A DNA stretch of 64,000 bases from an uncultured Lentisphaerota bacterium (GCA_903889245.1 CAISWQ010000091.1:1-64000), one strand, 5' to 3'. Positions 25,316 to 40,020 are shown, numbered from the stretch's first letter. Numbers and translations are program-made. The notes: generated by a model not told the origin, from the sequence alone.

Positions 25316-25428
25316 TTTCCAAGCCTCGGAAAATTTCACACGATTTTTTCCAAGGCTCGGAAAAGTTAGGGGCGAAATCTTCCAATGCTCGGAAAAACAG
25401 GGTGGGGGCCTTTCCAATCCTCGGAAAA
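25316..25428. repeat. TTCCAAGG-type palindrome cluster, CTCGG variant (4 units)
   Basis: Units at 25316-25334, 25345-25364, 25379-25396 and 25410-25428. All four end in CTCGGAAAA instead of CTTGGAAAA, while the left half varies (AAGC, AAGG, AATG, AATC). A variant fixed across one cluster points to local duplication. It lies between divergent genes. Confidence 0.9.
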
Positions 25429-25429
25429 C

Positions 25430-25464
25430 TTCGATGTTCGATGTTGGATGTTCGGTGTTCGATG
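25430..25464 (+). repeat. Heptad tandem array, consensus TTCGATG (5 units)
   Basis: TTCGATG, TTCGATG, TTGGATG, TTCGGTG, TTCGATG in perfect 7-base register, followed by TTCGCCATGG. It starts two bases after the palindrome cluster and ends about 55 bases before the ABC permease start codon. Confidence 0.85.
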
Positions 25465-25519: not shown

Positions 25520-26500
25520 ATGCGCCCCGACATGCGATGGCGGCTTGAACAATTTGGTGCGCTGGCGTGGCTGACGGCGCTGGAGGCGATGCGGCAGCCG
25601 GTCTTCCTGCTGCTGATGGCGGCGGCGTCCTTCTTTGCCGGGCTGCTGCCGCTGATCACCGCGCACACGCTCGGCGAGGCCGAGCGCATGGTCCGCGATA
25701 GCGCGCTCGCGCTGCACTTCGTCACCGGCCTCGTCCTCGGCAGCTACCTCGCCTGCGCCGCGCTCCAGCACGAAATCCGCCGCGGCACCGTCGCTGCCAT
25801 CCTCTCCAAGCCGGTCGGCCGCCTGACGCTTTTCCTCGCCAAGTTCGCCGGCATCGGGCTGGTCATGACCCTTTTCTCCGCCGCGCTGACCATCACCACC
25901 ATGCTGGCGACGCGCGCGGCGACGCCGGAGAACTATGTGGACTGGTGGAGCGAAGGCCCGCTGCTCGGCGCCGTCCCGCTCGCGTTCCTGATTGCCGGGC
26001 TGATCAACTATTTCACGCGCCGCCCGTTCGTCTCGAACGCGTTCGTCCTGCTCGTCGCCGCGCTTGGGGGTGCGCTGCTGTTCGCCGGTTTCTTCAGCGA
26101 TAGCGGCGAGCTTGTCACCTGGGGCCAGCCGCTGCCATGGAAAATCCTGCCCGCCGGCGCGCTCATCACGCTCGCGATCCTCGTCCTTGCCGCCTTCGCG
26201 CTGTTGCTGGCGACGAAGCTCGACGTGGTCCCGACCCTCTCGCTGTGCAGCGTCCTGTTCCTGCTCGGCCTGATGTCCGATTATTTCTTCGGTCGCACCG
26301 CCGCCACGAGCAAGGTCAGCGCCGTCCTCTACGGCCTGATTCCGAACCTCCAGCAATTCTGGCTGGCCGACGCGCTCGCCGGCGGCGGCGCGATCCCGTG
26401 GTCCTACGTCGGCGCCGCCGTGCTCTATGCGTTCTGCCTCTTGGCGTTTCTGCTCGCGCTCGGTATGCTCGTCTTCGGCCGCATGGAAGTGAAGGCGTGA
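25520..26500 (+). CDS. ABC-2 type transporter permease subunit
   Basis: A 326-residue integral membrane protein with about six or seven hydrophobic helices and the layout of ABC-2/NosY-type permeases. Indicative features are the N-terminal LAWLTALEAMRQPVFLLLMAAASF, the LQHEIRRGTVAAILSKPVGR loop and SNAFVLLVAALGGALLF. Such permeases need an ATP-binding partner, but none is encoded in the window; the upstream 500 bases are repeats only. The chosen ATG precedes an in-frame ATG by four codons, and neither has a Shine-Dalgarno. It is the first gene of the plus-strand group that continues with SPFH proteins and a P-type ATPase. Confidence 0.75.
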   Translation: MRPDMRWRLEQFGALAWLTALEAMRQPVFLLLMAAASFFAGLLPLITAHTLGEAERMVRDSALALHFVTGLVLGSYLACAALQHEIRRGTVAAILSKPVGRLTLFLAKFAGIGLVMTLFSAALTITTMLATRAATPENYVDWWSEGPLLGAVPLAFLIAGLINYFTRRPFVSNAFVLLVAALGGALLFAGFFSDSGELVTWGQPLPWKILPAGALITLAILVLAAFALLLATKLDVVPTLSLCSVLFLLGLMSDYFFGRTAATSKVSAVLYGLIPNLQQFWLADALAGGGAIPWSYVGAAVLYAFCLLAFLLALGMLVFGRMEVKA

Positions 26501-26504
26501 AGAA

Positions 26505-26647
26505 ATGGCTGATGGAAAATGGATGATGGTTAATGGAGGATGGTTGATGGCGGATGATAAATGGCAAAATGTTGATTATAGATGGCGGGCAATTAGAAGT
26601 TTACTGCCCATCAGCCATGAACCATTAGCCATCCTCCATTAACCATT
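26505..26647 (+). repeat. Two facing heptad arrays, consensus ATGGNNR (12 plus about 6 units)
   Basis: From 26505 to 26588 twelve 7-base units follow in register (ATGGCTG, ATGGAAA, ATGGATG, ATGGTTA, ATGGAGG and so on). After an 18-base spacer, about 26607-26647 carries the same motif on the opposite strand (reverse complement AATGGTT, AATGGAG, GATGGCT, AATGGTT, CATGGCT). The arms can pair over roughly 20 bases. The element fills the gap between the ABC permease stop and the SPFH start at 26657. Confidence 0.85.
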
Positions 26648-26656
26648 CGCTTCGCA

Positions 26657-28555
26657 ATGCATTCGCGCAACGAAAAACTCTGCTGGCTGGCTGCCGCGTT
26701 CGCGGCGGTCTGCCTGCTGCTGGCGCCGATTCTGCAGACGCGCACGAATCTGCTGCTGTTGCCCTCGTTGCTGCCCTTCTACGTCTATGCCCTGACCGCC
26801 GCCGTGCTCGTCGCCATCCGCCTGCGCCTCGCGCGCCTGGCCGATGACGAGCAGCGCGAAACGGAATTGCTCGAAAAGGAATCCGCGCACGGCGCGCTCT
26901 TCGCGACCGCGCACGGCGAGGCCGCGCCGCTGCAGCAGGCGCGCAGCCGCGACCAGTTCGAGAAATGGTTCGTGCCCGCCATCGCGCCGCTGCTCGCGAT
27001 CGTGTTCGGCCTCTGGATCTGGCAGCTCTCGCGCCGCTTCGCGCTGCCGGCCGCGGTGCCCGCGCAGCCGCTGATCGCCGCCGCCTTCCTCGCGGGCGAG
27101 GCGTTCCTGCTGTTCCTCTTGAGCCGCTTCCTGGTTGGCCTCGCGCGCAGCGACGATAGCAAGCTGCTGCGCGGCCCCGCCTTCGCGCTCGGCCTCGCCA
27201 GCTACGCCAACCTCATCGGCACCATCGCCGCCGCCTGCGTCGAGGGCGAGGTCCGCCCCGCCGACAAAATCGCCACCGTGGTCTTGCTTGCTGTGCTTGC
27301 CCTCGTCGCCGTGGAACTGGCGATGCGCGCGGTCGCCTCGTTCTACCGCGGCCCCGGCCGCGCCGGCGCGGTCATCGCCTACGAAAGCCGCCTCGCCGGC
27401 CTGCTGGCCGACCCGGCGTCGTGGACGCAGAACATCGCCGGCGCGCTCGACTACCAGTTCGGTTTCCAGGTCTCCGAGACGTGGCTCTACCGCTTTCTGC
27501 GCCGCGCGCTGTTGCCGCTCGTGGTGCTCAACCTCGTCGTCCTCTACGCGAGCACGTGCATCGTCACGCTCGGCCCCGACGAGGAAGGCATCCTCGAACA
27601 CTTCGGCAAGCCGAAGGCCGACGCGTGGCGGCTGGCGAGCGGCCTGCACTTCAAGCTGCCGTGGCCGTTCGAGACTGTCCGCCGCTTCCCGACCAAGCGG
27701 ATTCTCTCGCTCAACGTCGGCTTCCACAAAGAGGCTGGCGCGGCGCGCGAGACGCTGCTGCTCTGGACCGCGGCGCATTTCGATAGCGAGGAGCAGTACC
27801 TTGTTGCCAGCCGCGCCGACGCGGCCACCACCAACCTCGCGGGCGGCGTGGAGAACAGCGTGCCGGTCAACCTCGTCGTCATCAACATGCCGGTCGAGTT
27901 CCGTATTACCAACCTCTTCGCCTACGCCTATGAGCACGCCGAGCCGCAGAAGGCGATGGAGCAACTGGCCACCGCCGCGCTGACGCAGGAACTGGCGAGC
28001 CGCGACCTGCTCGGTCTGCTGGGGCCGGAGCGCTCCGCGGTCGCCGGCGCGCTCCGCCAACGGATGCAGCAGGCCGCCGACCGCCAGCGCCTCGGCGTCG
28101 AGATCGTTTTCGTCGGGCTCGCCGGTGTCCATCCGCCGCTCGGCGTCGCCGAGGCGTTCGAGTCGGTCGTCGGCGCGACGGAGGAGAAGGAGGCGACGAT
28201 CCTCGCCGCGCACGCCTACAGTAACAGCAACGCGCCGATCGCCATCGCCAACGCCGCGCGGCTCGGCGCCGAGGCCAGCGCCTACCGCGTCCGCCGTACT
28301 GAACTCGCGCAGGCCGAAGCCCAGCAGTTCGCCCGCCGCCTCGAGGCCGGCCGCACCGCGCCCGGCGTCTTCCGCAGCCGCGCCTACTTCGACACGCTTA
28401 CCGACTCGCTTGCCGGCATCCGCAAATACATCGTCGCCGCCGAGTCCGGCCACGACGTCCTGATTTTCAACCTCGAGGAAAAGCTCAACCTCGACTGGAT
28501 GAACCTCGGTGGCCCCGCGCCGGAGAAGCCGAAACTCCAAGGTGGAAACAAATGA
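26657..28555 (+). CDS. Large membrane protein with C-terminal SPFH (band 7/HflK-like) domain
   Basis: A 632-residue protein. About six hydrophobic helices occupy the first 310 residues, the last being LPLVVLNLVVLYASTCIVTL. An SPFH domain follows, beginning GPDEEGILEHFGKPKADAWRLASGLHFKLPWPFETVRRFPTK, the usual band-7 entry. The C-terminal part is an Ala/Glu-rich coiled coil (EEKEATILAAHAY..., RTELAQAEAQQFARRLEAG). The multi-helix N-terminus is much longer than in HflK or HflC. No ribosome site is visible. Its stop overlaps the next ATG. Presumed role: scaffold or protease-modulating platform in the membrane together with the two later SPFH proteins. Confidence 0.8.
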   Translation: MHSRNEKLCWLAAAFAAVCLLLAPILQTRTNLLLLPSLLPFYVYALTAAVLVAIRLRLARLADDEQRETELLEKESAHGALFATAHGEAAPLQQARSRDQFEKWFVPAIAPLLAIVFGLWIWQLSRRFALPAAVPAQPLIAAAFLAGEAFLLFLLSRFLVGLARSDDSKLLRGPAFALGLASYANLIGTIAAACVEGEVRPADKIATVVLLAVLALVAVELAMRAVASFYRGPGRAGAVIAYESRLAGLLADPASWTQNIAGALDYQFGFQVSETWLYRFLRRALLPLVVLNLVVLYASTCIVTLGPDEEGILEHFGKPKADAWRLASGLHFKLPWPFETVRRFPTKRILSLNVGFHKEAGAARETLLLWTAAHFDSEEQYLVASRADAATTNLAGGVENSVPVNLVVINMPVEFRITNLFAYAYEHAEPQKAMEQLATAALTQELASRDLLGLLGPERSAVAGALRQRMQQAADRQRLGVEIVFVGLAGVHPPLGVAEAFESVVGATEEKEATILAAHAYSNSNAPIAIANAARLGAEASAYRVRRTELAQAEAQQFARRLEAGRTAPGVFRSRAYFDTLTDSLAGIRKYIVAAESGHDVLIFNLEEKLNLDWMNLGGPAPEKPKLQGGNK

Positions 28556-28899
28556 AAAAAATTTCACCTAATTGGATTTGGTTTGTTGGGCTGTTTCTAT
28601 TTGCTTTGCTTGTTGCAGGCGGCAGATTGCTTTTTGCTGGCGCAGACGGAATAGGCATGGCGTTGGTTGCCTTGTTACATTTTCCAGTCGGTATTGAAAT
28701 CGCCTTGACACGAAATACGTCGGCTGAAGTGCTGAATCATTGGGGCGTTGTTGTTTTTGGGTTTGTAATTTATGCGGCAATAATCACCTTCGGTTCGTTG
28801 CGCAGGAGTCTGGCGCTCTGGACAATTTTCCTGTTGATGTTGGTGGTGAATGTCGCTGGCTGCCATTGCCTATGGCATGATCTTGGTACGATAAAATAA
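28552..28899 (+). CDS. Small four-helix membrane protein of low GC content
   Basis: A 115-residue hydrophobic protein, not recognised. Four predicted membrane segments: WIWFVGLFLFALLVAGG, GMALVALLHFPVGIEIAL, WGVVVFGFVIYAAIITF and LWTIFLLMLVVNVAG. The ATG overlaps the SPFH stop codon (ATGA), so it is built into the operon. Its base composition is strikingly different: codons such as AAA, ATT, TTT and TTG dominate and G+C is roughly 45 percent against about 70 percent in its neighbours. This suggests recent acquisition by transfer. It ends 21 bases before the hflC-like start. Confidence 0.7.
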   Translation: MKKISPNWIWFVGLFLFALLVAGGRLLFAGADGIGMALVALLHFPVGIEIALTRNTSAEVLNHWGVVVFGFVIYAAIITFGSLRRSLALWTIFLLMLVVNVAGCHCLWHDLGTIK

Positions 28900-28920
28900 G
28901 ATTCATTGAACGAGGAAGTC

Positions 28921-29820
28921 ATGAAACGCAACGTTGGCATGTTGATGTTCGGCCTGTGTGTGGCGGCGCTGCTGCTGCTGCTGCAGGTGCTGTTCATCGT
29001 GCGGCAGGGCGAGGTTGCCGTGCTGACCACCTTCGGCAAGCCGCAGCGCGCGCTGACCGAGCCCGGCCTCTATGGCCGCTGGCCTTGGCCGGTGCAGCGC
29101 GTCTACACCTTCGACGCGCGCCTGCGCAGCCTCGAAGGCGCCTTCGAGCAGACCATCACGCAGGACGGCAAAAACCTGCTCGTCTCCGTCGCCGCCGGCT
29201 GGCGCGTCAAGGAGCCGCTGCTCTTCCTCGAGCGCGTCGGTTCCGATGCGCAGGCGGAGCAGAATCTCGATGGCCTCATCCGCAACCACAAGACCGCGGT
29301 GCTCGGCCAGGTCCCGCTCGCCGCGCTCGTCAACACGCGCCGTGAGGCGCTGAAGTTCGACGAGGTCGAGCGGCGCATGCTCGCCGCCGTGCAGGCCGAG
29401 GCGCGCGACCGCTATGGCATCGAGGTCGAGTTCCTCACCATCCGCAAGCTCGGCCTGCCGGAGGGCATCACCGCGAAGGTCTTCGAGCGCATGCGCGAGG
29501 AGCGCAAGGCGATTGCGGAGGGCTACCGCGCCGAGGGCGAGGGCGAGGCCATCCGCATCCGTGCCGAGGCCGATAGCCAGCGCGACCAGACGCTCGCCAA
29601 GGCCGAGGCCGACGCCAAGCGCCTGCGCGCCGAGGGCGATGCCGCCGCCGCCGAGTTCTACCGCGAGTTCGAGAAGAATCCCGACCTCGCCATGTTCCTG
29701 CGCAAGCTAGAGGCGCTGGAGCAGACGCTGAAGGAGAAGTCCACGGTCGTCCTCGGCGCCGATACCGAACCCTTCGACCTCCTCCGCAGCGGCGAGGCGA
29801 AAAAACAGAACCCGAAATGA
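28921..29820 (+). CDS. hflC: HflC-like SPFH protease modulator
   Basis: A 299-residue protein with one N-terminal membrane helix (about 4-25), an SPFH domain starting IVRQGEVAVLTTFGKPQRALTEPGLYGRWPWPVQRVYTFD, and the HflC-type C-terminal part DRYGIEVEFLTIRKLGLPEGITAKVFERMREERKAIAEGYRAEGEGEAIRIRAEAD. In proteobacteria HflC and HflK form a cage that modulates the FtsH protease. A TTG five codons earlier is open, but the ATG at 28921 has GAGGAAG in the right place. Its partner hflK follows after 518 bp of repeats, an unusually long gap for this pair. Confidence 0.85.
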   Translation: MKRNVGMLMFGLCVAALLLLLQVLFIVRQGEVAVLTTFGKPQRALTEPGLYGRWPWPVQRVYTFDARLRSLEGAFEQTITQDGKNLLVSVAAGWRVKEPLLFLERVGSDAQAEQNLDGLIRNHKTAVLGQVPLAALVNTRREALKFDEVERRMLAAVQAEARDRYGIEVEFLTIRKLGLPEGITAKVFERMREERKAIAEGYRAEGEGEAIRIRAEADSQRDQTLAKAEADAKRLRAEGDAAAAEFYREFEKNPDLAMFLRKLEALEQTLKEKSTVVLGADTEPFDLLRSGEAKKQNPK

Positions 29821-29849
29821 GCCACAGCGATTCCAGGATTCTGTTCAGT

Positions 29850-30043
29850 GTGGGCGGGGCTGGAAGCCCCGCGTTCATGCTGCGGTTTTGCTTGGCTCGC
29901 GGGACTTGGAAGTCCCGCCCACAAGACTGGCTTGGCTCTGCTGGTGGGCGGGCGCTACAGCTCCCGCGGGAAAAAGGTCGCGGGAAATTTGGGAGGGTTG
30001 AGGCAGATTTCTCTGGCGGACGGCTCGGCGCGCCGTCCCTCCC
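29850..30043. repeat. Group of four GC-rich REP-like hairpins
   Basis: Hairpins at 29851-29875 (GCGGGGCTGGAAGCCCCGC), 29897-29922 (GCGGGACTTGGAAGTCCCGC), 29944-29970 (GGGCGGGCGCTACAGCTCCC) and 30018-30043 (GGACGGCTCGGCGCGCCGTCC-like). The stretch 29821-30338 between hflC and hflK contains no gene; it is a mosaic of hairpins, one TTCCAAGG cluster and heptad or nonamer arrays. Confidence 0.65.
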
Positions 30044-30124
30044 TTTCCAAGGCTTGGAAAAATTCTGGCGAAAAGTTCCAAGCCTCGGGGAAAAAATCCG
30101 CGAAAATTTCCAATCCTTGGAAAA
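30044..30124. repeat. TTCCAAGG-type palindrome cluster (3 units)
   Basis: TTTCCAAGGCTTGGAAAA at 30044-30062, GTTCCAAGCCTCGGGGAAAA at 30075-30093 and TTTCCAATCCTTGGAAAA at 30107-30124, lying between hflC and hflK on the same strand. Confidence 0.88.
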
Positions 30125-30138
30125 GTTGCGGCTGGGGC

Positions 30139-30256
30139 GCGCCGGGTCGGAGACCCGGCCTACAGCAGGCTGTTGCAGCTTGGTTGGGTTCGCGGGGTTG
30201 GAAACCCCGCACTCAAGAGCAGGCTGGTTTTGTGGGCGGGAGCTACAGCTCCCGCG
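30139..30256. repeat. Group of three GC-rich REP-like hairpins
   Basis: Hairpins at 30139-30166 (GCCGGGTCGGAGACCCGGC then CTACAGC), 30190-30214 (GCGGGGTTGGAAACCCCGC) and 30231-30256 (GGGCGGGAGCTACAGCTCCC). Several carry a GTAG or GTGG-like head next to the stem on one strand. Confidence 0.6.
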
Positions 30257-30283
30257 AAAGTGTTTGGCTGCGGCCGATCAGTC

Positions 30284-30363
30284 GGATTCGTCCGATCCGT
30301 CTGATCTCCGCGAACAACTGACAAATGACAACTGACCAATGACAGCCGACAAAGAACAACTTG
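30284..30363 (+). repeat. Composite array: GATC nonamers then CAACTGA heptads across the hflK start
   Basis: From about 30286, three 9-base units (GTCGGATTC, GTCCGATCC, GTCTGATCT). Then from 30315 seven 7-base units in register: CAACTGA, CAAATGA, CAACTGA, CCAATGA, CAGCCGA, CAAAGAA, CAACTTG. The hflK ATG (30339-30341) lies inside the fourth heptad, so the array continues into coding sequence. A similar composite precedes the alkD-like gene. Confidence 0.82.
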
Positions 30364-31367
30364 ATGCCGGACAGCAGGCGCTGGGCGATGCGCTGGCGGT
30401 CAGCTTCCGCGCGCTGCGCGCGGTGATGCTGGCGCTGCTGGCGGGCTATCTGCTCTCCGGCCTGTTCATCGTGCATCAGGACGAGCGCGCGTTCACGCTA
30501 GTCTTCGGTCAGGTGTCCGGCGACGCCGCGCACCGCCTCAAGGGGCCGGGCCTGCACTGGACGTGGCCCAAGCCCATCGCCGAGGTCGTCCGCCTCAAGA
30601 CCGAGCGCGTCGCGACGCTGATGACAACCTCGTTCTGGCCCAAGGAAGATCCGCTTGCGAAGGACGCGGGCGCGCCCTCTCCGACGCTCAAGCCCGGCAC
30701 CGATGGCTATACGCTGACCGGCGACGCCAACCTGCTGCATTCGCGCTGGGCGGTCCGCTATACCTTGAGCGATCCCGAGACCTTCGCCTTCGGCTGGCGC
30801 GACGCCGCGCAGACGCTGCACGACGAGTTCGACCGCGCGATCCTCGCAACCAGCGCGCAGATGCCCGTGGACCAGGCGCTGCGCACGAACGTCGAGGATT
30901 TCCGCTCCACGGTCGAGCAGACGCTGCGCACGCGCTGCGACGCGCTGCGCCTCGGCGTGCGCGTACAGGGCGTGGATATCCTCGGGCTGACGCCGCCGCG
31001 GCAGGTGGCGGAGGCGTTTAATGCTGTGGTCGAGTCGGAGCAGGAGCGCAGCCGGCGCATCAGCGAGGCCCGCGCCTACGCGACGCGGCAGACCAGTGAG
31101 GCGCGCGGGCAGGCGGCGCGTACGCTTGCCGAAGGCGCGTCGGAGAAAAACAGGATCATCAGCCAGACCAAGGCCGACGCCGACTATTTCCGCAAGATTC
31201 TGGTCGAGTACGCGAAGAACCCGGACGTGATCCTGAAGACGCTGCGGCAGGACGCCGTACGCCGGACGCTGGAAAAGGTGGACCAGAAATTCGTGGTCCA
31301 CCGCGACGCCAGCGGTCAGCAGGAAATCCGCGTGATGGTTTCGCCGGAGCAGCCGAAGAGGAAATAG
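30339..31367 (+). CDS. hflK: HflK-like SPFH protease modulator
   Basis: A 342-residue protein with one membrane helix (about 27-48) and an SPFH domain beginning LFIVHQDERAFTLVFGQVSGDAAHRLKGPGLHWTWPKPIAEVVRLKTERV. The HflK-type tail is RVQGVDILGLTPPRQVAEAFNAVVESEQERSRRISEARAYATR with a long coiled coil. The first residues (MTADKEQL) are written by the heptad array and are probably not conserved. No Shine-Dalgarno is visible. It is presumed to assemble with the HflC-like protein around a membrane protease; no ftsH is in the window. Confidence 0.85.
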   Translation: MTADKEQLDAGQQALGDALAVSFRALRAVMLALLAGYLLSGLFIVHQDERAFTLVFGQVSGDAAHRLKGPGLHWTWPKPIAEVVRLKTERVATLMTTSFWPKEDPLAKDAGAPSPTLKPGTDGYTLTGDANLLHSRWAVRYTLSDPETFAFGWRDAAQTLHDEFDRAILATSAQMPVDQALRTNVEDFRSTVEQTLRTRCDALRLGVRVQGVDILGLTPPRQVAEAFNAVVESEQERSRRISEARAYATRQTSEARGQAARTLAEGASEKNRIISQTKADADYFRKILVEYAKNPDVILKTLRQDAVRRTLEKVDQKFVVHRDASGQQEIRVMVSPEQPKRK

Positions 31368-31381
31368 CGACAAAGACGGAA

Positions 31382-31459
31382 GATTAGGATTAGGAGTTAC
31401 GAGTAAGATTAAGAGTCGATGGCCAAATGACAACTGACCACCAACAACTGACGACTGAC
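31382..31459 (+). repeat. Tandem arrays upstream of the P-type ATPase
   Basis: A GATTAGG/AGTAAGA-like degenerate run (31382-31415), then five heptads in register: AAATGAC (31425), AACTGAC, CACCAAC, AACTGAC, GACTGAC (ends 31459). The start codon is five bases further on, with no Shine-Dalgarno between. Confidence 0.8.
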
Positions 31460-31464
31460 GCTCC

Positions 31465-33360
31465 ATGCTGATCAAACACCATGCTCATGAAGCCGGCGAA
31501 CCGCACGGACACTCCGCGCAGGGGTTGCTGGTGTGGATTTTCCTCGGCACGGCTTTCGTGCTGAATGGCTTTCTGGCACCGCATATTTTCAGCGATGATC
31601 CCTTGGTCGGGCACATCTCCGCCGCCATCGGCGCGGTCATCCTGCTGCTGCCGATCCTGAAAACCTCCGTCGAGGATTTGCTGCACGGTCACGTACACAT
31701 GAACGAGCTGGTGGCGCTCGCGGTACTGGCGGCGATGGCGCAGGGCGATTTCCTGACGGCGGGCGTCGTCGCGTTCTTCATGCTGATCGCGCTGGTCATC
31801 GAGACGTGTTCCGCCGCCGGCGCGCATCAGGCCATCGAGAAACTCATCCGCCTGACGCCGACGACCGCGCGCAAGCTCGACGCCAACAATAACGAAGTCA
31901 CCGTCCCGGCCGCGCAGCTTGCCGTCGGCGACCGCATCCGCGTCCTGCCCGGCGATGCGATTCCGGCCGACGGCCTGATCGAGCGCGGCCAGACGACGCT
32001 GAACGAGGCGACGGTGACAGGCGAGTCGCTGCCGCGCGACAAGGGCCCGCAGGAGGAAGTCTTCGCCGGCACGCAGAACCTGACCGGCGCGATCGATGTC
32101 ATCGTCAAGCGCGTCGGCGAGGACACGACGCTCGGCCACGTTCGCAAATTGATTCTCGCCGCCGAACAGACGCGGCTGCCGATCCAGCGGATCATGGACC
32201 GCTACGTGAGCTATTACACGCCGGTGATGCTGATGCTGGCGGCGCTGGTGTGGTTCTTCACGGGCGAGTGGAGCCGCGTCATCGCGCTGCTCGTCATCGC
32301 CTGCCCGTGCGCGGTGATCCTCGCGACGCCGACGGCGATGGTCGCCGCGCTTTCCGCCGCGGCCAAGCTCGGCATCCTCATCCGCAACGTCGGCGACCTT
32401 GAATCGGCGGCGAAGCTGAATGCGGTGATTTTCGACAAGACCGGCACGCTGACCACCGGCAAGCTCGGCGTGGCGCGGCTCGCGCCGCGCGAGGGCGTGA
32501 CACCCTCGGCATTGCTGCTCGCCGCTGCCGGCGCGGAGCGGTTCAGCAAACATCCCGCCGCGCTCGCGCTCGTCGAACTCGCGCAGCAGACCGGCCTCGC
32601 GCTGCCGGAGCCGGCCGACTTCAAGGAAACACCGGGCCAGGGCGTCAGCGCCACCATCGCCGGCCAGAAGATCGTCAGCGGCCGCGCCACGTTCCTCAAG
32701 GCGCAGGGCATCAACTCCGATACGCTGGCGCAGGCCGATGCGCAGGAGACGGAAGGCTTCAGCGTCATCTTCGTCGCCGCCGACGGGAAGTATCTCGGCT
32801 GGGTCGGTTTCCAGGATCAGCCGCGCGCCGAGGCCGAGGCCAGCCTGCAAACGCTCGCCGGCCTCAAGGTCAAGCGTATCGCGATGGTCACCGGCGACCG
32901 CTCGTCCGTCGCGCGCGCCGTGGCCGCGAAGATCGGCTGCCGCGAGTTCAAGGCCGAGTGCCTGCCGCAGGAGAAGGTCGAGTTTGTACGCGGCGTCCAG
33001 CGCGAAGGCTACCGCGTCGCGTTCGTCGGCGATGGCGTCAACGATGCGCCCGCGCTCGCCGCCGGCGATTCCGGCATCGCGATGGGCGCGGCCGGCAGCG
33101 ACGTGGCGATCCACAGCGCCTCCGTCGCGTTGATGAGCAGCGACCTGCGCCGCGTACCCACGCTGATCCGCATCTCGCGCAGCGCCCGCAACGTCATCCA
33201 CCAGAACCTGGGCCTCGGCGGCCTGTTCATCGTGGGCGGTTTGATTCTCTCCGGCCTCGGCCTGATGGGCCCGATCATCGCCGCGATCCTGCACAACGCC
33301 GGCAGCCTGCTGGTGGTGATGAACAGCGCCCGCCTGATTCGCTTGGGCGACGATAAGTAA
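31465..33360 (+). CDS. Heavy-metal P1B-type ATPase
   Basis: A 631-residue cation-pumping ATPase. The actuator loop has TGES (185-188), the transmembrane metal site is CPC (280-282) in IACPCAVILATPTAM, the phosphorylated aspartate is D324 in DKTGTLT, the P1B-specific HP pair is at 363-364 in SKHPAALAL, and the hinge motif is GDGVNDAPAL. A short histidine-rich N-terminus (KHHAHEAGEPHGH) replaces the usual HMA metal-binding domain. CPC proteins pump Zn/Cd/Pb or Cu/Ag; which one is not clear. The gene follows hflK after about 100 bp of tandem repeats. The TAA is followed one base later by a REP element. Confidence 0.9.
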   Translation: MLIKHHAHEAGEPHGHSAQGLLVWIFLGTAFVLNGFLAPHIFSDDPLVGHISAAIGAVILLLPILKTSVEDLLHGHVHMNELVALAVLAAMAQGDFLTAGVVAFFMLIALVIETCSAAGAHQAIEKLIRLTPTTARKLDANNNEVTVPAAQLAVGDRIRVLPGDAIPADGLIERGQTTLNEATVTGESLPRDKGPQEEVFAGTQNLTGAIDVIVKRVGEDTTLGHVRKLILAAEQTRLPIQRIMDRYVSYYTPVMLMLAALVWFFTGEWSRVIALLVIACPCAVILATPTAMVAALSAAAKLGILIRNVGDLESAAKLNAVIFDKTGTLTTGKLGVARLAPREGVTPSALLLAAAGAERFSKHPAALALVELAQQTGLALPEPADFKETPGQGVSATIAGQKIVSGRATFLKAQGINSDTLAQADAQETEGFSVIFVAADGKYLGWVGFQDQPRAEAEASLQTLAGLKVKRIAMVTGDRSSVARAVAAKIGCREFKAECLPQEKVEFVRGVQREGYRVAFVGDGVNDAPALAAGDSGIAMGAAGSDVAIHSASVALMSSDLRRVPTLIRISRSARNVIHQNLGLGGLFIVGGLILSGLGLMGPIIAAILHNAGSLLVVMNSARLIRLGDDK

Positions 33361-33361
33361 G

Positions 33362-33386
33362 GTGGAACGCGACCTCCGGGCGCGTT
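33362..33386 (+). repeat. REP element of the GTGGAA type (plus orientation)
   Basis: Head GTGGAAC followed by the hairpin GCGACCTCCGGGCGC, whose arms pair except for one A-G mismatch. It starts two bases after the P-type ATPase stop and lies 20 bases before the RAYT start codon. Confidence 0.85.
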
Positions 33387-33405
33387 AGAACTGTGGAGAT
33401 GTTGT

Positions 33406-33906
33406 ATGAGTGAAGAGGTCAAAGCGGATGAAGCGAACGCGCCCAGAGGTCGCGTTCCACCTGCGAAGCAAATTTATCCGCAACGCCTTCATCATGCCGT
33501 GCCATCGTGGGTGGCATCTGGACGTATCTTTCACATTCGGATTCGCTGCTTGCCGGAGAATTCGGTCCCGCTGATCAAGCCGGAGGTTGCCGAGCAGTTG
33601 CGATTATCCGTTGCCTTCTATGAGGCCAAGATGCGCTGGCACTGTCGCTTGTTTCTGTTGATGCCCGATCATGTACATGCCTTGCTGGGGTTTCCAGAAC
33701 AAGAACCGATGTCTCGTGTTGTCGGCGATTGGAAGCGTTACCAGCACAAGCAACTGGGAATTCTCTGGCAGGACAATTACTTTGATCATCGCCTTCGCAA
33801 CTCGGATGAACTGGTCACGAAGACATCCTATATCCGGCAGAATCCTGTGGTAAAAGGATTGTGCTCCACAGCAGAAGAATGGCCTTGGGTGTGGAGTTTT
33901 GAGTAA
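33406..33906 (+). CDS. REP-associated tyrosine transposase (RAYT, Y1 family)
   Basis: A 166-residue single-strand nuclease of the IS200/IS605-like Y1 superfamily that acts on REP hairpins. The divalent-metal HUH motif is MPDHVHALLG (H89, H91) and the catalytic tyrosine is Y142 in KTSYIRQNPVVKGLC. The core domain starts near residue 24 (YPQRLHH). Residues 9-20 are encoded by an inverted copy of the same REP sequence that flanks the gene, so the N-terminus is not conserved protein. GGAG lies about nine bases before the ATG. Four more GTGGAA-type REP copies lie within 700 bp, which identifies its substrate with good confidence. Confidence 0.88.
   Translation: MSEEVKADEANAPRGRVPPAKQIYPQRLHHAVPSWVASGRIFHIRIRCLPENSVPLIKPEVAEQLRLSVAFYEAKMRWHCRLFLLMPDHVHALLGFPEQEPMSRVVGDWKRYQHKQLGILWQDNYFDHRLRNSDELVTKTSYIRQNPVVKGLCSTAEEWPWVWSFE
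33436..33460 (-). repeat. REP element inside the RAYT N-terminus (minus orientation)
   Basis: The reverse complement of the flanking REP, with GCGACCTCTGGGCGC as hairpin (one change). It pairs as an inverted partner with the copy at 33362 and encodes part of the RAYT N-terminus. Confidence 0.8.
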
Positions 33907-33919
33907 GGTGACGCGACTG

Positions 33920-33987
33920 TTGGAATGCGACCTTCGGGCGCTTTCAAACGATGCTGAAAGAGAACGCGCCCGGAGGTCGCGTTCCAC
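33920..33987. repeat. Inverted REP pair (REPIN)
   Basis: A plus-strand REP at 33920-33944 (hairpin GCGACCTTCGGGCGC) and a minus-strand REP at 33963-33987 (GCGACCTCCGGGCGC), separated by 18 bases. This is the REPIN arrangement thought to be the mobile unit of RAYT systems, placed directly after the RAYT gene. Confidence 0.82.
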
Positions 33988-34010
33988 CAGGGTTCAAGTG
34001 ACTTGTGAAT

Positions 34011-36588: not shown

Positions 36589-39090
36589 TTAGGTGGAGCA
36601 ATGAACCAGCAGATAGATCAACCAACTCACGCCCGCCAGGAATAGCAGGAACTGCAGCCATGGCTTCTGTAGCAGATGATAGGTTCCGACCAAGGTCCAG
36701 ATCACCCACGTGATGACTTGCAACATGCTCTTCAAGATGGGGGCCAGTTTGCTGCTCTGCAGGGTGTCGCGGAGCATGGTGAGCGTGGTGACGGCGCCGC
36801 GCATGATCCAGTTGAGTTTACGGCTCCAAGGGATATCGCGCAGCGTCTGGCGTCCGATCAGGTGCTCAAAGTCGCGCGCGCGGCCGCTGGTGGAGATGCC
36901 CATGCCGAGTTGGCGCATCTCCCTGATGATGTCAATCTGGAGTTGCTTGCGGAGCGTCTCACGCCCAGCCGGATCGGCCCCTGGGGGCCAGAGGTGCTTC
37001 AGGATGATTTCCGCGGCGTCGAGACGCCCCCACGTCAGGTCATTACCGCGCCAGACCTCGGACATGAAGCCGCCGAAATGCAGGCCTTGCTCGCCGGCGA
37101 GTTTCTGCCGGGCGCTTAACTGGCCCATGAAGGCGCTGGCATCGGCGGGGCTGATGCGGGCGAAGGCCACGGGTTGCAACTCGGCGGCCAGTTCCGGGCT
37201 TTGCATCATTGGATAGAGGATCAGGTCACGCTGAAAGAAGCTGTCGAGCGCGTCGCGCACTTTCCAATAGCCCGCTTCCACCTGGTAGTCGCCGCGGTGC
37301 AGGGCGAGCACCTCGGCAGGCAGGGTCAGGTAATCGTTCTGCAACTTGCGCCACGCGGTCTCGCGCAGTTTTTCGAGGAACGCTTTGCGCTGGCCCAGCA
37401 GGCTGTGTTGCGCCAACTGGCGCGCCAACCCGGACAGGCGGCTCGCGACCTGTGCGGACAGATGCTCCGCGACCCGTCCATCGGGGCCAAGAGGCAGACG
37501 ACGGAGTTCCTCGACCGCGTGTTTCAGGCTGGCCATGAGTTCATCCACCTCGGCGGTTTGCAGGGTGGCCTCGGCCCGCTGCCGGGAGCGGATCAGTTCC
37601 TCCTGGCTGTAGAAGAAATCCTTCAAGCCATTGAGTATGCCGGTGACCGCCTGTTGCCAGGGCAGATCGCCCGTGCCCGTACCCGTGCCGCCGGGAGCCG
37701 CGGGGTAGAGTTCGCGGACCAGTTGCGCCAGATAACGGTACATGCGCTGGTGATAGGTGAGGTCGAGCCGGTCCAGCAGCATCCGCTTTACGTCATAGAA
37801 GGGTCCGCGCGCTGTCTCGCCCAGGAGCCTGGCCAGCGCCTGCAACGCCGCCTGCAGGGCGGCACGTTGGGCTTCCTTTTCCACGACATCGTTGTCCAGT
37901 CGCAGGTCCAGATAACCATCCTCCAAAGCACGATAGAGTGCCGTTGCGCGGTTGCTGTCCGGCAGAAACGTGAGGCAACGATGCTGGTCATCGGCCCAGG
38001 AATCCCGGGTGATGCGCTCCCGCGCCTGTTCCGGCGCCTTCGCGTCTTTCAGCACGCCCCTGGCGCGGTAGCGGCCGGCCGCATCGTCATAGTAGGCCAG
38101 CGTCCGCTTGCGCGCCTCCACCACGCGGTTGTGTTGCTGGATTTTCCGCAGGGCACTGGTGATGCTCTGGTAGGCCGGCAGCGTGAGGACAGACTTGAGG
38201 ATCACCTCCCACGGCGAGTAACAGCGGGCTGCCGTTGTGCCGGGGTTGGGCGTGATGTGTTCCGGGTCCGGCTCGATATAAAACAGCAGACGTTGAATCT
38301 GCTTGTCGGCGCGGCGCGCGGCGATGGCTTGCACGGCGTGGTCAATCGGTTTGTTGTCCAGCACGCCGCCATCCACGTGGTAGGCCGGCGCGGAGAGATC
38401 ACAGGCGCGGCGGCCCAACCCCTCCCTGGTCACCAGCACCGGCTCGAACGCAAACGGAAATGACGAGGTGGTCCGCACCGCGTCCGCCAGCAGGCCGGTA
38501 TCCTCGGTGGAGGCAAAGTCGTTGCGCCCCGGTTCATCGGCGTGCGCCGGCGCGCGATAGGCAAAATGAAAGACCTGCCGGTGCGTGCGCGTCTTGAGCG
38601 GCGCGCCGCGCGGCGTCGGGATGGTCACGCAGTCGCCATCGAGGTTGGTGGCTGTGATGAACAGGTCCAGATAGGGCTGGAGCGCCCCGCCGCCCGTTTG
38701 CTTCTCGAGCAGCGCCTCGAAAATCTTCTGGCGGAACCGGTCGCCATCGAGCAGCGCGCGCGGCTGTTGCCGGCCGGGCGGATAGAGCAACTTGCCGATA
38801 TCGCCTTCCTCCCGCCAGACCTCCATCAGCTTGGCCATGTTGCCGCCATTGACCAGCGCATTGGCGAGGAACGCGCCGTTGAGTCCGCCCGCCGAGGAAC
38901 CGGTGATGATGTCCACCTCGACCTTGCCAATCAGCGGGCGCAGCGCCGCGTAGGCGCCTTCGCCGCGGACCAGCCGGAAAAATTCCAGCGCCACGCCGCT
39001 CTCATACACCGCCAGCGCGACACCGCCGTAGAACGCCAGCGCGATGCGCGTCTCCTGCAACCCTTCCCACGTGGCCCGTTGTGTCTCCAT
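36589..39090 (-). CDS. Patatin-like phospholipase with C-terminal membrane helices
   Basis: An 833-residue lipid acyl hydrolase of the patatin-related (DUF3376-like) type. The oxyanion loop YGGVALAVYESG (21-32), nucleophile elbow GSSAG (64-68, S66) and catalytic aspartate in VDGGVLDNKP form the Ser-Asp dyad. A long helical middle region follows. The C-terminus has two hydrophobic helices (ILKSMLQVITWVIWTLVGTYHLL and WLQFLLFLAGVSWLIYLLVH), which would anchor it in a membrane. AAAGGGG precedes the ATG. Neighbours are muiA-like downstream and uppP divergently, all envelope-related. Substrate lipid is unknown. Confidence 0.87.
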   Translation of the reverse strand: METQRATWEGLQETRIALAFYGGVALAVYESGVALEFFRLVRGEGAYAALRPLIGKVEVDIITGSSAGGLNGAFLANALVNGGNMAKLMEVWREEGDIGKLLYPPGRQQPRALLDGDRFRQKIFEALLEKQTGGGALQPYLDLFITATNLDGDCVTIPTPRGAPLKTRTHRQVFHFAYRAPAHADEPGRNDFASTEDTGLLADAVRTTSSFPFAFEPVLVTREGLGRRACDLSAPAYHVDGGVLDNKPIDHAVQAIAARRADKQIQRLLFYIEPDPEHITPNPGTTAARCYSPWEVILKSVLTLPAYQSITSALRKIQQHNRVVEARKRTLAYYDDAAGRYRARGVLKDAKAPEQARERITRDSWADDQHRCLTFLPDSNRATALYRALEDGYLDLRLDNDVVEKEAQRAALQAALQALARLLGETARGPFYDVKRMLLDRLDLTYHQRMYRYLAQLVRELYPAAPGGTGTGTGDLPWQQAVTGILNGLKDFFYSQEELIRSRQRAEATLQTAEVDELMASLKHAVEELRRLPLGPDGRVAEHLSAQVASRLSGLARQLAQHSLLGQRKAFLEKLRETAWRKLQNDYLTLPAEVLALHRGDYQVEAGYWKVRDALDSFFQRDLILYPMMQSPELAAELQPVAFARISPADASAFMGQLSARQKLAGEQGLHFGGFMSEVWRGNDLTWGRLDAAEIILKHLWPPGADPAGRETLRKQLQIDIIREMRQLGMGISTSGRARDFEHLIGRQTLRDIPWSRKLNWIMRGAVTTLTMLRDTLQSSKLAPILKSMLQVITWVIWTLVGTYHLLQKPWLQFLLFLAGVSWLIYLLVHCST

Positions 39091-39213
39091 GACCAACCCC
39101 TTTCCGGGGGCAGCTCCCCCATGGCTGGGGTGCATAGCAAACCCGCCTGTCCAATACAAGCCTGCCACGCTTTGCGGTTGTGCGGCGCCGGGGCGGCGAC
39201 TATCCTCCGCGCC

Positions 39214-40020
39214 ATGACGAACAACGTGCTCATCACCACGGTCGCCGGCATCGTCGAGGGCCTCACCGAATTCCTCCCTGTTTCTTCCACGGGCCACCTG
39301 CTGCTCACCGAGCGCTTGTTTGGGCAGCAGTTGAGCGACCTGTTCAACATCGTCATCCAGTCCGGCGCGGTGTTGGCGGTCCTGCCGCTGTTCCGCGAGC
39401 GGCTGGCGCAGTTCCTCTTTCGCTGGCGCGAGCGGGCGACGCAACTCTATGCCGCCAAGATTGCCGTTGCTTTCCTCGTTACGGCCATCGGCGGGCTGGC
39501 GCTGGAGAAAAGTGGCTTCAAGCTGCCGGAGACCGCCTTCCCGATCGCGATGGCGCTGCTGGTCGGCGGTCTCGGCTTCATCGCCGTGGAGGCCTGGCTC
39601 AAGCGGCGGACGACGGGCAGTGACATCACCTGGCTCATCGCCGTGGTGGTGGGCTTGGCGCAGGTGCTGGCCGCGGTCTATCCCGGCACCTCGCGCTCCG
39701 GGTCCAGCATCCTGTTCGCGCTGCTGCTCGGCTTGAGTCGGCCGGCGGCGACAGAGTTCTCCTTCCTCGTCGGCATCCCGACCATGCTCGCGGCGGGCAG
39801 CCTGAAAATCCTGCACGAGGTGCGGCATCCGGTACCCGGTGCACCGCCAGAGGATTGGGCGCTGGTCGCGCTCGGCTTTATGGTCTCCGCCCTCGTTTCC
39901 TTCATCGTCGTCAAATGGCTGTTGCGCTACGTCCAGACCCACACCTTCACGGCTTTCGGCTGGTATCGCATCGCCATCGCTGCCCTGATCTTTGGCTTGC
40001 TCGCCGCCGGTTCGTCATGA
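39214..40020 (+). CDS. uppP: Undecaprenyl-diphosphatase UppP (BacA)
   Basis: A 268-residue multi-helix inner-membrane phosphatase that recycles undecaprenyl pyrophosphate for peptidoglycan and other envelope polymers. Both signature loops are present: EGLTEFLPVSSTGH (15-28) and the PGTSRSGSS arginine motif. Length and helix count match the family. It is transcribed away from the patatin gene, separated by a 123-bp gap with no evident element. Overexpression is known to give bacitracin resistance. Confidence 0.95.
   Translation: MTNNVLITTVAGIVEGLTEFLPVSSTGHLLLTERLFGQQLSDLFNIVIQSGAVLAVLPLFRERLAQFLFRWRERATQLYAAKIAVAFLVTAIGGLALEKSGFKLPETAFPIAMALLVGGLGFIAVEAWLKRRTTGSDITWLIAVVVGLAQVLAAVYPGTSRSGSSILFALLLGLSRPAATEFSFLVGIPTMLAAGSLKILHEVRHPVPGAPPEDWALVALGFMVSALVSFIVVKWLLRYVQTHTFTAFGWYRIAIAALIFGLLAAGSS

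What the first reader, a model, noticed from the sequence alone, without database searches (positions are those of the whole stretch)
25520..33360. Membrane gene set: ABC permease, three SPFH proteins, a small membrane protein and a P1B ATPase
Seen: six same-strand genes, including a 632-residue SPFH protein with a multi-helix N-terminus, then HflC- and HflK-like proteins and a CPC-type metal ATPase without an HMA domain. Known: HflK/HflC form a ring cage around FtsH; SPFH proteins organise membrane domains. Three SPFH proteins beside a metal pump and an orphan ABC-2 permease is not the classical hflKC context. Inference: a membrane platform in which SPFH assembly controls turnover or activity of the pump or permease, possibly a metal or membrane-stress system.
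Basis: partly seen in the sequence, partly recalled or inferred. Interest (0 to 1): 0.68.

Follow-up and report, generated by a model that had tools for sequence, protein, structure and literature searches.

The report
Three SPFH proteins serving metal pump
A Verrucomicrobiota-type bacterium carries a set of genes, kept together across very distant bacteria and on plasmids, in which three ring-forming membrane scaffold proteins travel with a zinc-type metal pump, pointing to a dedicated scaffold for metal transport that nobody seems to have recognised as one system.

Summary
The six genes are there. Five of them are a deeply conserved unit: ABC-2 permease, long SPFH protein, HflC-like, HflK-like, P1B ATPase. 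The 115-residue "small membrane protein" is a private, low-GC insertion.

In related loci with enough flank, 87 of 90 keep HflC, HflK and the pump behind the long SPFH protein. In many relatives an ABC ATPase, a second permease and a TPR protein follow. In this genome those three sit together on another contig, so the permease is not an orphan. The same SPFH-SPFH-SPFH-pump order occurs on Rhizobium, Klebsiella, Burkholderia and Paraburkholderia plasmids. Published P. aeruginosa data list a matching zinc-starvation cluster (HmtA with PA2437-PA2439).

The pump forms its own clade with CPC and an "HN" motif, as in CtpC (P1B6-like). The long protein's extra helices look like a degenerate cation-diffusion-facilitator (CDF) domain; true CDF-SPFH fusions exist elsewhere. 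Canonical HflK-HflC pairs coexist with the unit in other genomes.

Best reading: a dedicated HflKC-type ring for a zinc-class P-type ATPase. Linkage is shown; ring enclosure, metal and direction are inferred. It is a new variant of a known kind.

The parts
25520..26500 (+). ABC-2 type permease (PERM), about 326 aa
   Evidence: Pfam ABC2_membrane_4/2 just below cut-off; conserved directly upstream of the long SPFH gene in 71 of 98 loci with enough upstream sequence; homologous to the second permease of the extended operon, hhalign probability 97% over 314 columns
26657..28555 (+). long SPFH protein (632 aa): six-helix N-terminal domain of degenerate CDF type, seventh helix, HflK-like SPFH and coiled coil
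   Evidence: Band_7 45.5 bits and TIGR01933 130.4 bits; AlphaFold model pLDDT 80.8; Foldseek: HflK first, YiiP/ZnT1 for the helical part; hhalign against CDF probability 80%, 201 columns
28552..28899 (+). 115-aa small membrane protein; private insertion, not part of the conserved unit
   Evidence: no Pfam/NCBIfam match; GC 45% against 67-69% for its neighbours; no tblastn match in any fetched related locus
28921..29820 (+). HflC-like SPFH protein (ORF opens at TTG 28906; ATG at 28921 more likely)
   Evidence: TIGR01932 146.9 bits, above cut-off; only HflC in the genome
30339..31367 (+). HflK-like SPFH protein (342 aa)
   Evidence: TIGR01933 142.6 bits, Band_7 66 bits; operon K proteins form one clade including the plasmid copies
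31465..33360 (+). P1B-type ATPase (631 aa): CPC, SxHP, DKTGT, TM8 HNAGS, His-rich N-terminus, no HMA domain
   Evidence: TIGR01525 519.7 bits; alignment A2; separate group with TM8 His motif

Best explanation
The locus encodes a dedicated HflK/HflC-type SPFH assembly for a transition-metal P-type ATPase, most likely of the zinc group. Three paralogous SPFH proteins (one fused to a degenerate CDF-type membrane domain) would form a hetero-oligomeric ring or dome on the outer face of the inner membrane that holds, concentrates and protects the pump and controls the space into or from which it moves metal. In this phylum the unit is usually coupled to an ABC-2 exporter with a TPR partner, split off to another contig in this genome. 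Shown: gene content, conserved linkage across phyla, the pump's sequence group and motifs, remote CDF likeness of the long protein, a paralogous canonical HflKC in other genomes. Inferred: ring assembly, contact with the pump, zinc as substrate. Undecided: import or export.
For: Linkage: 87/90 loci with enough flank keep HflC, HflK and P1B behind the long SPFH gene, across more than ten GTDB families and on plasmids of Rhizobium, Klebsiella, Burkholderia and Paraburkholderia. Pump: own group, 762-1072 bits against at most 573 for other P1Bs of the same genomes; nearly all CPC, TM8 His (mostly HN or HT), the combination called P1B6-like for CtpC, which needs a scaffold, PacL1, to form efflux platforms (PMC9374683). 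Long SPFH: CDF-like helices and true CDF-SPFH fusions in sister trios. Not merely relocated HflKC: canonical HflK-HflC pairs coexist in G112 and G240 and are a separate clade. Metal context: Paraburkholderia copy next to zinc ABC transporter genes, a GTP-binding protein and PCu(A)C; P. aeruginosa PA2434-PA2439 (HmtA plus three HflC/K proteins) rises under zinc depletion (PMC4542158, PMC11761036). ABC partner in trans.
Against: No interaction, localisation or transport data exist for this unit in this phylum. CPC is lost (VPA) in two members and altered in two others, so the substrate may vary. A same-genus genome (G062, 94% complete) lacks the long SPFH protein, so the unit is dispensable. L065 and L068 keep the SPFH trio without the pump. 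The CDF likeness is remote and the HxxxD metal sites are absent.
Confidence: 0.6

Rival explanations
1. The trio is simply this lineage's FtsH-regulating HflKC complex; the pump is one FtsH client or a neighbour without a special role.
For: The operon HflC passes the TIGR01932 cut-off. This genome has no other HflC and has one FtsH on another contig. HflKC may shield proteins from FtsH in E. coli (PMC12005517).
Against: Genomes such as G112 and G240 hold a canonical HflK-HflC pair as well, in a separate well-supported clade. The pump is linked in 87/90 loci while the canonical pairs examined lack it. Other SPFH plus P1B pairings exist with different pump types (L217, L218).
Confidence: 0.17
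2. A direction-specific version of the main reading: the unit serves zinc uptake under scarcity (HmtA-like import), not efflux. It is compatible with the main explanation, so the two confidences overlap.
For: HmtA is described as a Zn/Cu importer, and PA2434-PA2439 is induced in zinc depletion with a weak Zur site (PMC4542158, PMC11761036). Zinc ABC transporter and GTP-binding protein genes flank the Paraburkholderia copy.
Against: Nearly all characterised P1B ATPases export (general knowledge), including CtpC (PMC9374683). CDF-SPFH fusions with intact HxxxD-type sites, one of them beside a ZntA-type pump, suggest efflux for sister units. No regulator or Zur site was identified in this phylum.
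Confidence: 0.35
3. The heart of the unit is the ABC-2/TPR exporter (envelope lipid or polymer export); SPFH proteins and P1B pump are accessories.
For: ABC ATPase, second permease and TPR protein follow in 41 of 72 loci with enough flank; about 97% of genomes with a clear long SPFH protein also hold the TPR protein (my count from the lists).
Against: The TPR module is also common in genomes without the SPFH unit. The plasmid copies have SPFH trio plus pump and no ABC-2/TPR module.
Confidence: 0.1
4. Gene order is conserved without functional coupling.
For: Most loci come from one phylum and are related.
Against: Linkage survives at 23-45% identity, in two divergent copies within one genome (G212) and on conjugative plasmids in other classes.
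Confidence: 0.03

Closest known systems
P. aeruginosa hmtA cluster PA2434-PA2439 (PaFlo5-6-7 operon)
   Same: Three HflC/HflK-family proteins beside a metal P-type ATPase; zinc-depletion induced (PMC4542158, PMC11761036, PMC9431628); three-SPFH operon noted in PMC13086221
   Different: Treated as separate items in those papers; no ABC-2/TPR module described; PA2436 lies between trio and pump; sequence orthology not tested here
HflK/HflC-FtsH complex (E. coli)
   Same: HflK/HflC-type SPFH proteins with a membrane helix before the SPFH domain (PMC12005517)
   Different: Three paralogues instead of two, one with six extra helices; linked to a P1B pump, not hfq/hflX; the unit coexists with canonical HflKC in other genomes
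PacL/CtpC metal efflux platforms (M. tuberculosis)
   Same: P1B6-like ATPase (CPC plus HN) with a dedicated membrane scaffold in its operon (PMC9374683)
   Different: Scaffold there is a small DUF1490 protein and clustering is flotillin-independent; here the partners are SPFH proteins
CDF zinc transporters (YiiP, ZnT)
   Same: Six-helix arrangement of the long SPFH protein's N-terminus; true CDF-SPFH fusions exist
   Different: The long protein lacks the HxxxD metal-site pairs

Membership tests
HflK/HflC (TIGR01932/TIGR01933) | Score above curated cut-off | tested here: inconclusive
   HflC yes (146.9 vs 134.4); long and third SPFH proteins below the hflK cut-off
HflK/HflC (TIGR01932/TIGR01933) | Falls in the clade of canonical HflK-HflC pairs | tested here: not met
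   Canonical HflC is a separate starred clade; operon K and LONG are their own starred clades
HflK/HflC (TIGR01932/TIGR01933) | Binds FtsH | not testable with these tools
   No FtsH gene in the unit; one FtsH on contig C28
P1B metal ATPase | DKTGT, GDGVNDAP, HP locus, CPC-type membrane motif | tested here: met
   Alignment A2, TIGR01525 519.7 bits
P1B6-like ATPase (as CtpC) | HN motif in the last helix plus CPC | tested here: met
   HNAGS and CPC in the window; H followed mostly by N or T in other members; definition from PMC9374683
CDF transporter | Six-helix fold | tested here: inconclusive
   hhalign 80%, score 42 vs at most 20.5 in reversed/shuffled controls; Foldseek E 1e-2 to YiiP
CDF transporter | HxxxD/DxxxD metal site in helices 2 and 5 | tested here: not met
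   No equivalent residues in the aligned helices
PacL/DUF1490 scaffold | A DUF1490 protein encoded with the pump | tested here: not met
   No such Pfam match in any of the window proteins
HmtA cluster | Three HflC/K genes plus metal P-type ATPase in one cluster | tested here: met
   Gene content here against published Table 2 of PMC4542158
HmtA cluster | Sequence orthology to PA2435, PA2437-PA2439 | not testable with these tools

The most novel reading that the evidence does not exclude
Three SPFH paralogues, one carrying a dead CDF transporter domain, build a mixed HflKC-like cage that encloses the P1B pump and forms an outer-face metal-transfer chamber; transporters were recruited to such cages more than once, in cis as CDF-SPFH fusions and in trans as P1B ATPases, making SPFH cages general compartments for metal transport.
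Probability: 0.27. Interest if true: 0.85.

Novelty: new variant of a known kind. Interest (0 to 1): 0.62.

Why it matters
[quoted passage not shown] aeruginosa concluded that its SPFH operons lack conserved context (PMC13086221). Here a three-SPFH unit is tied to one group of metal ATPases across phyla and on conjugative plasmids, with a remote CDF-like domain built into one subunit. That gives a direct, testable client for an SPFH assembly and links two unexplained observations: zinc-starvation induction of HflC/K-like proteins, and scaffold-dependent P1B6-like pumps.

Tried and rejected
1) Small membrane protein as a subunit: rejected, private low-GC insertion. 2) Orphan permease: rejected, ATPase, second permease and TPR protein lie together on C31. 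3) Other SPFH genes of this genome (C3, C28) as a second copy: the C3 region is unrelated to the unit; C28 was not resolved. 4) NCBIfam scan of L004/L006 with stops read through gave nothing useful. 5) First collection scan with the 24-row alignment failed for lack of conserved stretches; repeated with 12 rows. 6) LONG as a direct descendant of the CDF-SPFH fusions: not supported; the SPFH domains of the fusions group with their own K partners and near canonical HflK, not with LONG, so the CDF likeness may be an independent fusion. 7) Cu, ZntA-type or Co type for the pump: TM8 motifs differ from those groups in the same genomes. 8) E. coli genomes for the Klebsiella plasmid operon: no match. 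9) The TPR protein model gave only generic solenoid matches with low TM-scores.

Full report
1. What is in the window. ORF listing and sequence show six consecutive + strand genes: ABC-2 permease (25520-26500), long SPFH protein (26657-28555), a 115-aa ORF (28552-28899), HflC-like (28921-29820), HflK-like (30339-31367) and a P1B ATPase (31465-33360). A REP-associated tyrosine transposase-like gene follows (33406-33906). The window lies in a 5.26 Mb genome of 125 contigs whose nearest named relatives are uncultured 'Lentisphaerae' and Kiritimatiellaeota MAGs; I take the phylum to be Verrucomicrobiota in GTDB terms.

2. Conservation. The long SPFH protein was searched in 289 genomes of the phylum. 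Neighbourhoods of such loci and of 80 named loci from a scan of one genome per species show the order PERM - LONG - HflC - HflK - P1B again and again, often followed by ABC ATPase - second ABC-2 permease - TPR protein. Counting only loci with enough flank: 87 of 90 have HflC, HflK and P1B; 71 of 98 have PERM upstream; 41 of 72 have all three downstream genes. The loci are related to each other and partly overlap between the two sets, so the counts are not independent, but identities to the window protein run down to 23-45% for the more distant members. Three exceptions (L065, L067, L068) have other genes in the pump's place.

3. Split operon. The window genome lacks the downstream module next door but holds it intact at C31:8431-12414: ABC ATPase 67% and permease 39% identical to the operonic copies of L042, and the TPR protein. 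The same split is seen in other genomes of the class. PERM and the second permease are homologous over their length (hhalign 97%), so one ATPase with two permeases is a plausible exporter (inference). The TPR module is also present in many genomes without the SPFH unit, so it is separable.

4. The 115-aa ORF. GC 45% against 67-69%, no family, no match in any related locus; the same-genus relative goes directly from LONG to HflC. It is an insertion.

5. The pump. With sequences from the operon loci and from a P1B search of 22 genomes, the operon pumps score 762-1072 bits with their own profile and all other P1Bs at most 573; the profile was built from operon pumps, so the gap rather than the absolute score is the evidence. 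The others in the same genomes show the copper (MxxSS), zinc (DTGA plus Lys) and cobalt (SPC, HEG) motifs; the operon pumps show CPC and a TM8 His followed mostly by Asn or Thr (92 of 99 CPC). Two have VPA and two LPC in place of CPC. About half of the called set (17 of 35) have five or more His before the first helix, in places GHDH-like. CPC plus HN is what PMC9374683 calls P1B6-like for CtpC.

6. The long SPFH protein. The model has seven long helices and an HflK-like SPFH/coiled-coil part. Foldseek finds HflK/C, stomatin and prohibitin first, then YiiP and ZnT1 for the helical part at E about 0.01-0.2. Profile alignment of the helical domain with CDF proteins of the same phylum gives probability 80%, P 1.4e-5, 201 columns covering all six helices, score 42; reversed and block-shuffled controls score at most 20.5. 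A first run with fewer sequences was weaker (11% with plain CDFs, 49% with the fusions added). The HxxxD pairs are absent. A search for CDF domains hit two HflK-like proteins that carry both PF01545 and PF01145 far above cut-off; a third is on an Aquibium plasmid and a fourth in G279 (full-length match). In the SPFH tree these fusions do not group with LONG, so common descent of the two architectures is not shown. A CDF membrane domain has both ends inside the cell (general knowledge), so one more helix would put the SPFH domain outside, as in HflK/C (topology of HflK/C from PMC12005517; inference for LONG).

7. Relation to canonical HflKC. Canonical HflK-HflC pairs without a pump occur in G066, G068, G112 and G240; G112 and G240 also have the operon. 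They form separate clades. The window genome has no other HflC. Second copies or other SPFH-P1B pairings occur in G007, G088, G114 and G212.

8. Outside the phylum. Plasmids of Rhizobium tumorigenes, Klebsiella aerogenes (conjugative), Burkholderia ubonensis (conjugative) and Paraburkholderia sprentiae carry long HflK - HflC - HflK/SPFH - P1B, the pumps with CPC and HN. The Paraburkholderia copy is near zinc ABC transporter genes, a GTP-binding protein and PCu(A)C.

9. Literature. PMC4542158 Table 2 lists PA2434, PA2435 (HmtA, importer) and PA2437-PA2439 (HflC/HflK family) as 5.6-14.4-fold up in a znuA mutant with a weak Zur site; PMC11761036 sees the proteins up in zinc depletion; PMC9431628 lists the three HflC/K genes in the zur response. 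PMC13086221 describes the three-SPFH operon and finds it restricted; a search of its text found no mention of hmtA or P-type ATPases. PMC2636767 does not mention ATPases. Searches for papers joining SPFH or HflK/C with P-type ATPases found no description of the unit; most subscription papers are not held, so an earlier description cannot be excluded.

10. Verdict. The best mechanism is a dedicated SPFH assembly for a zinc-class P-type ATPase; assembly, contact, metal and direction are inferences.

Noticed in passing
L219:6328-7857, L225:5683-7215, L274:9001-10548, L255: CDF (PF01545) domains fused to HflK-type SPFH domains in trios with HflC and HflK, with intact HxxxD-type sites; on the Aquibium plasmid beside a PPIase and a ZntA-type pump.
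   Followed up: partly
L049, L054 (P1B genes): Two operon pumps have VPA instead of CPC in the membrane metal site while keeping the TM8 His.
   Followed up: no
window 33361-33988: REP-associated tyrosine transposase-like gene flanked by 26-nt perfect inverted repeats (33361-33386 / 33963-33988).
   Followed up: no
window 25316-25436 and 30044-30132: Six copies of a 26-nt palindrome-like repeat (TTTCCAAGGCTTGGAAA type) in intergenic DNA upstream of the permease and between hflC and hflK.
   Followed up: no
L226 (G212:C2:318000-334000): A second, divergent complete eight-gene operon in a genome that already has one.
   Followed up: partly
L210 (G000:C31:8431-12414): ABC ATPase - ABC-2 permease - TPR operon, widespread in the phylum also without the SPFH unit (TPR matches in 197 of 289 genomes at E 1e-3).
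   Followed up: partly
L056:19341-19901: A DUF21/CNNM-like membrane protein gene follows the TPR gene in some loci (identity by eye only).
   Followed up: no
window 36589-39942: Long minus-strand ORF whose sequence carries a patatin-like GSSAGG motif and terminal helices (by eye).
   Followed up: no
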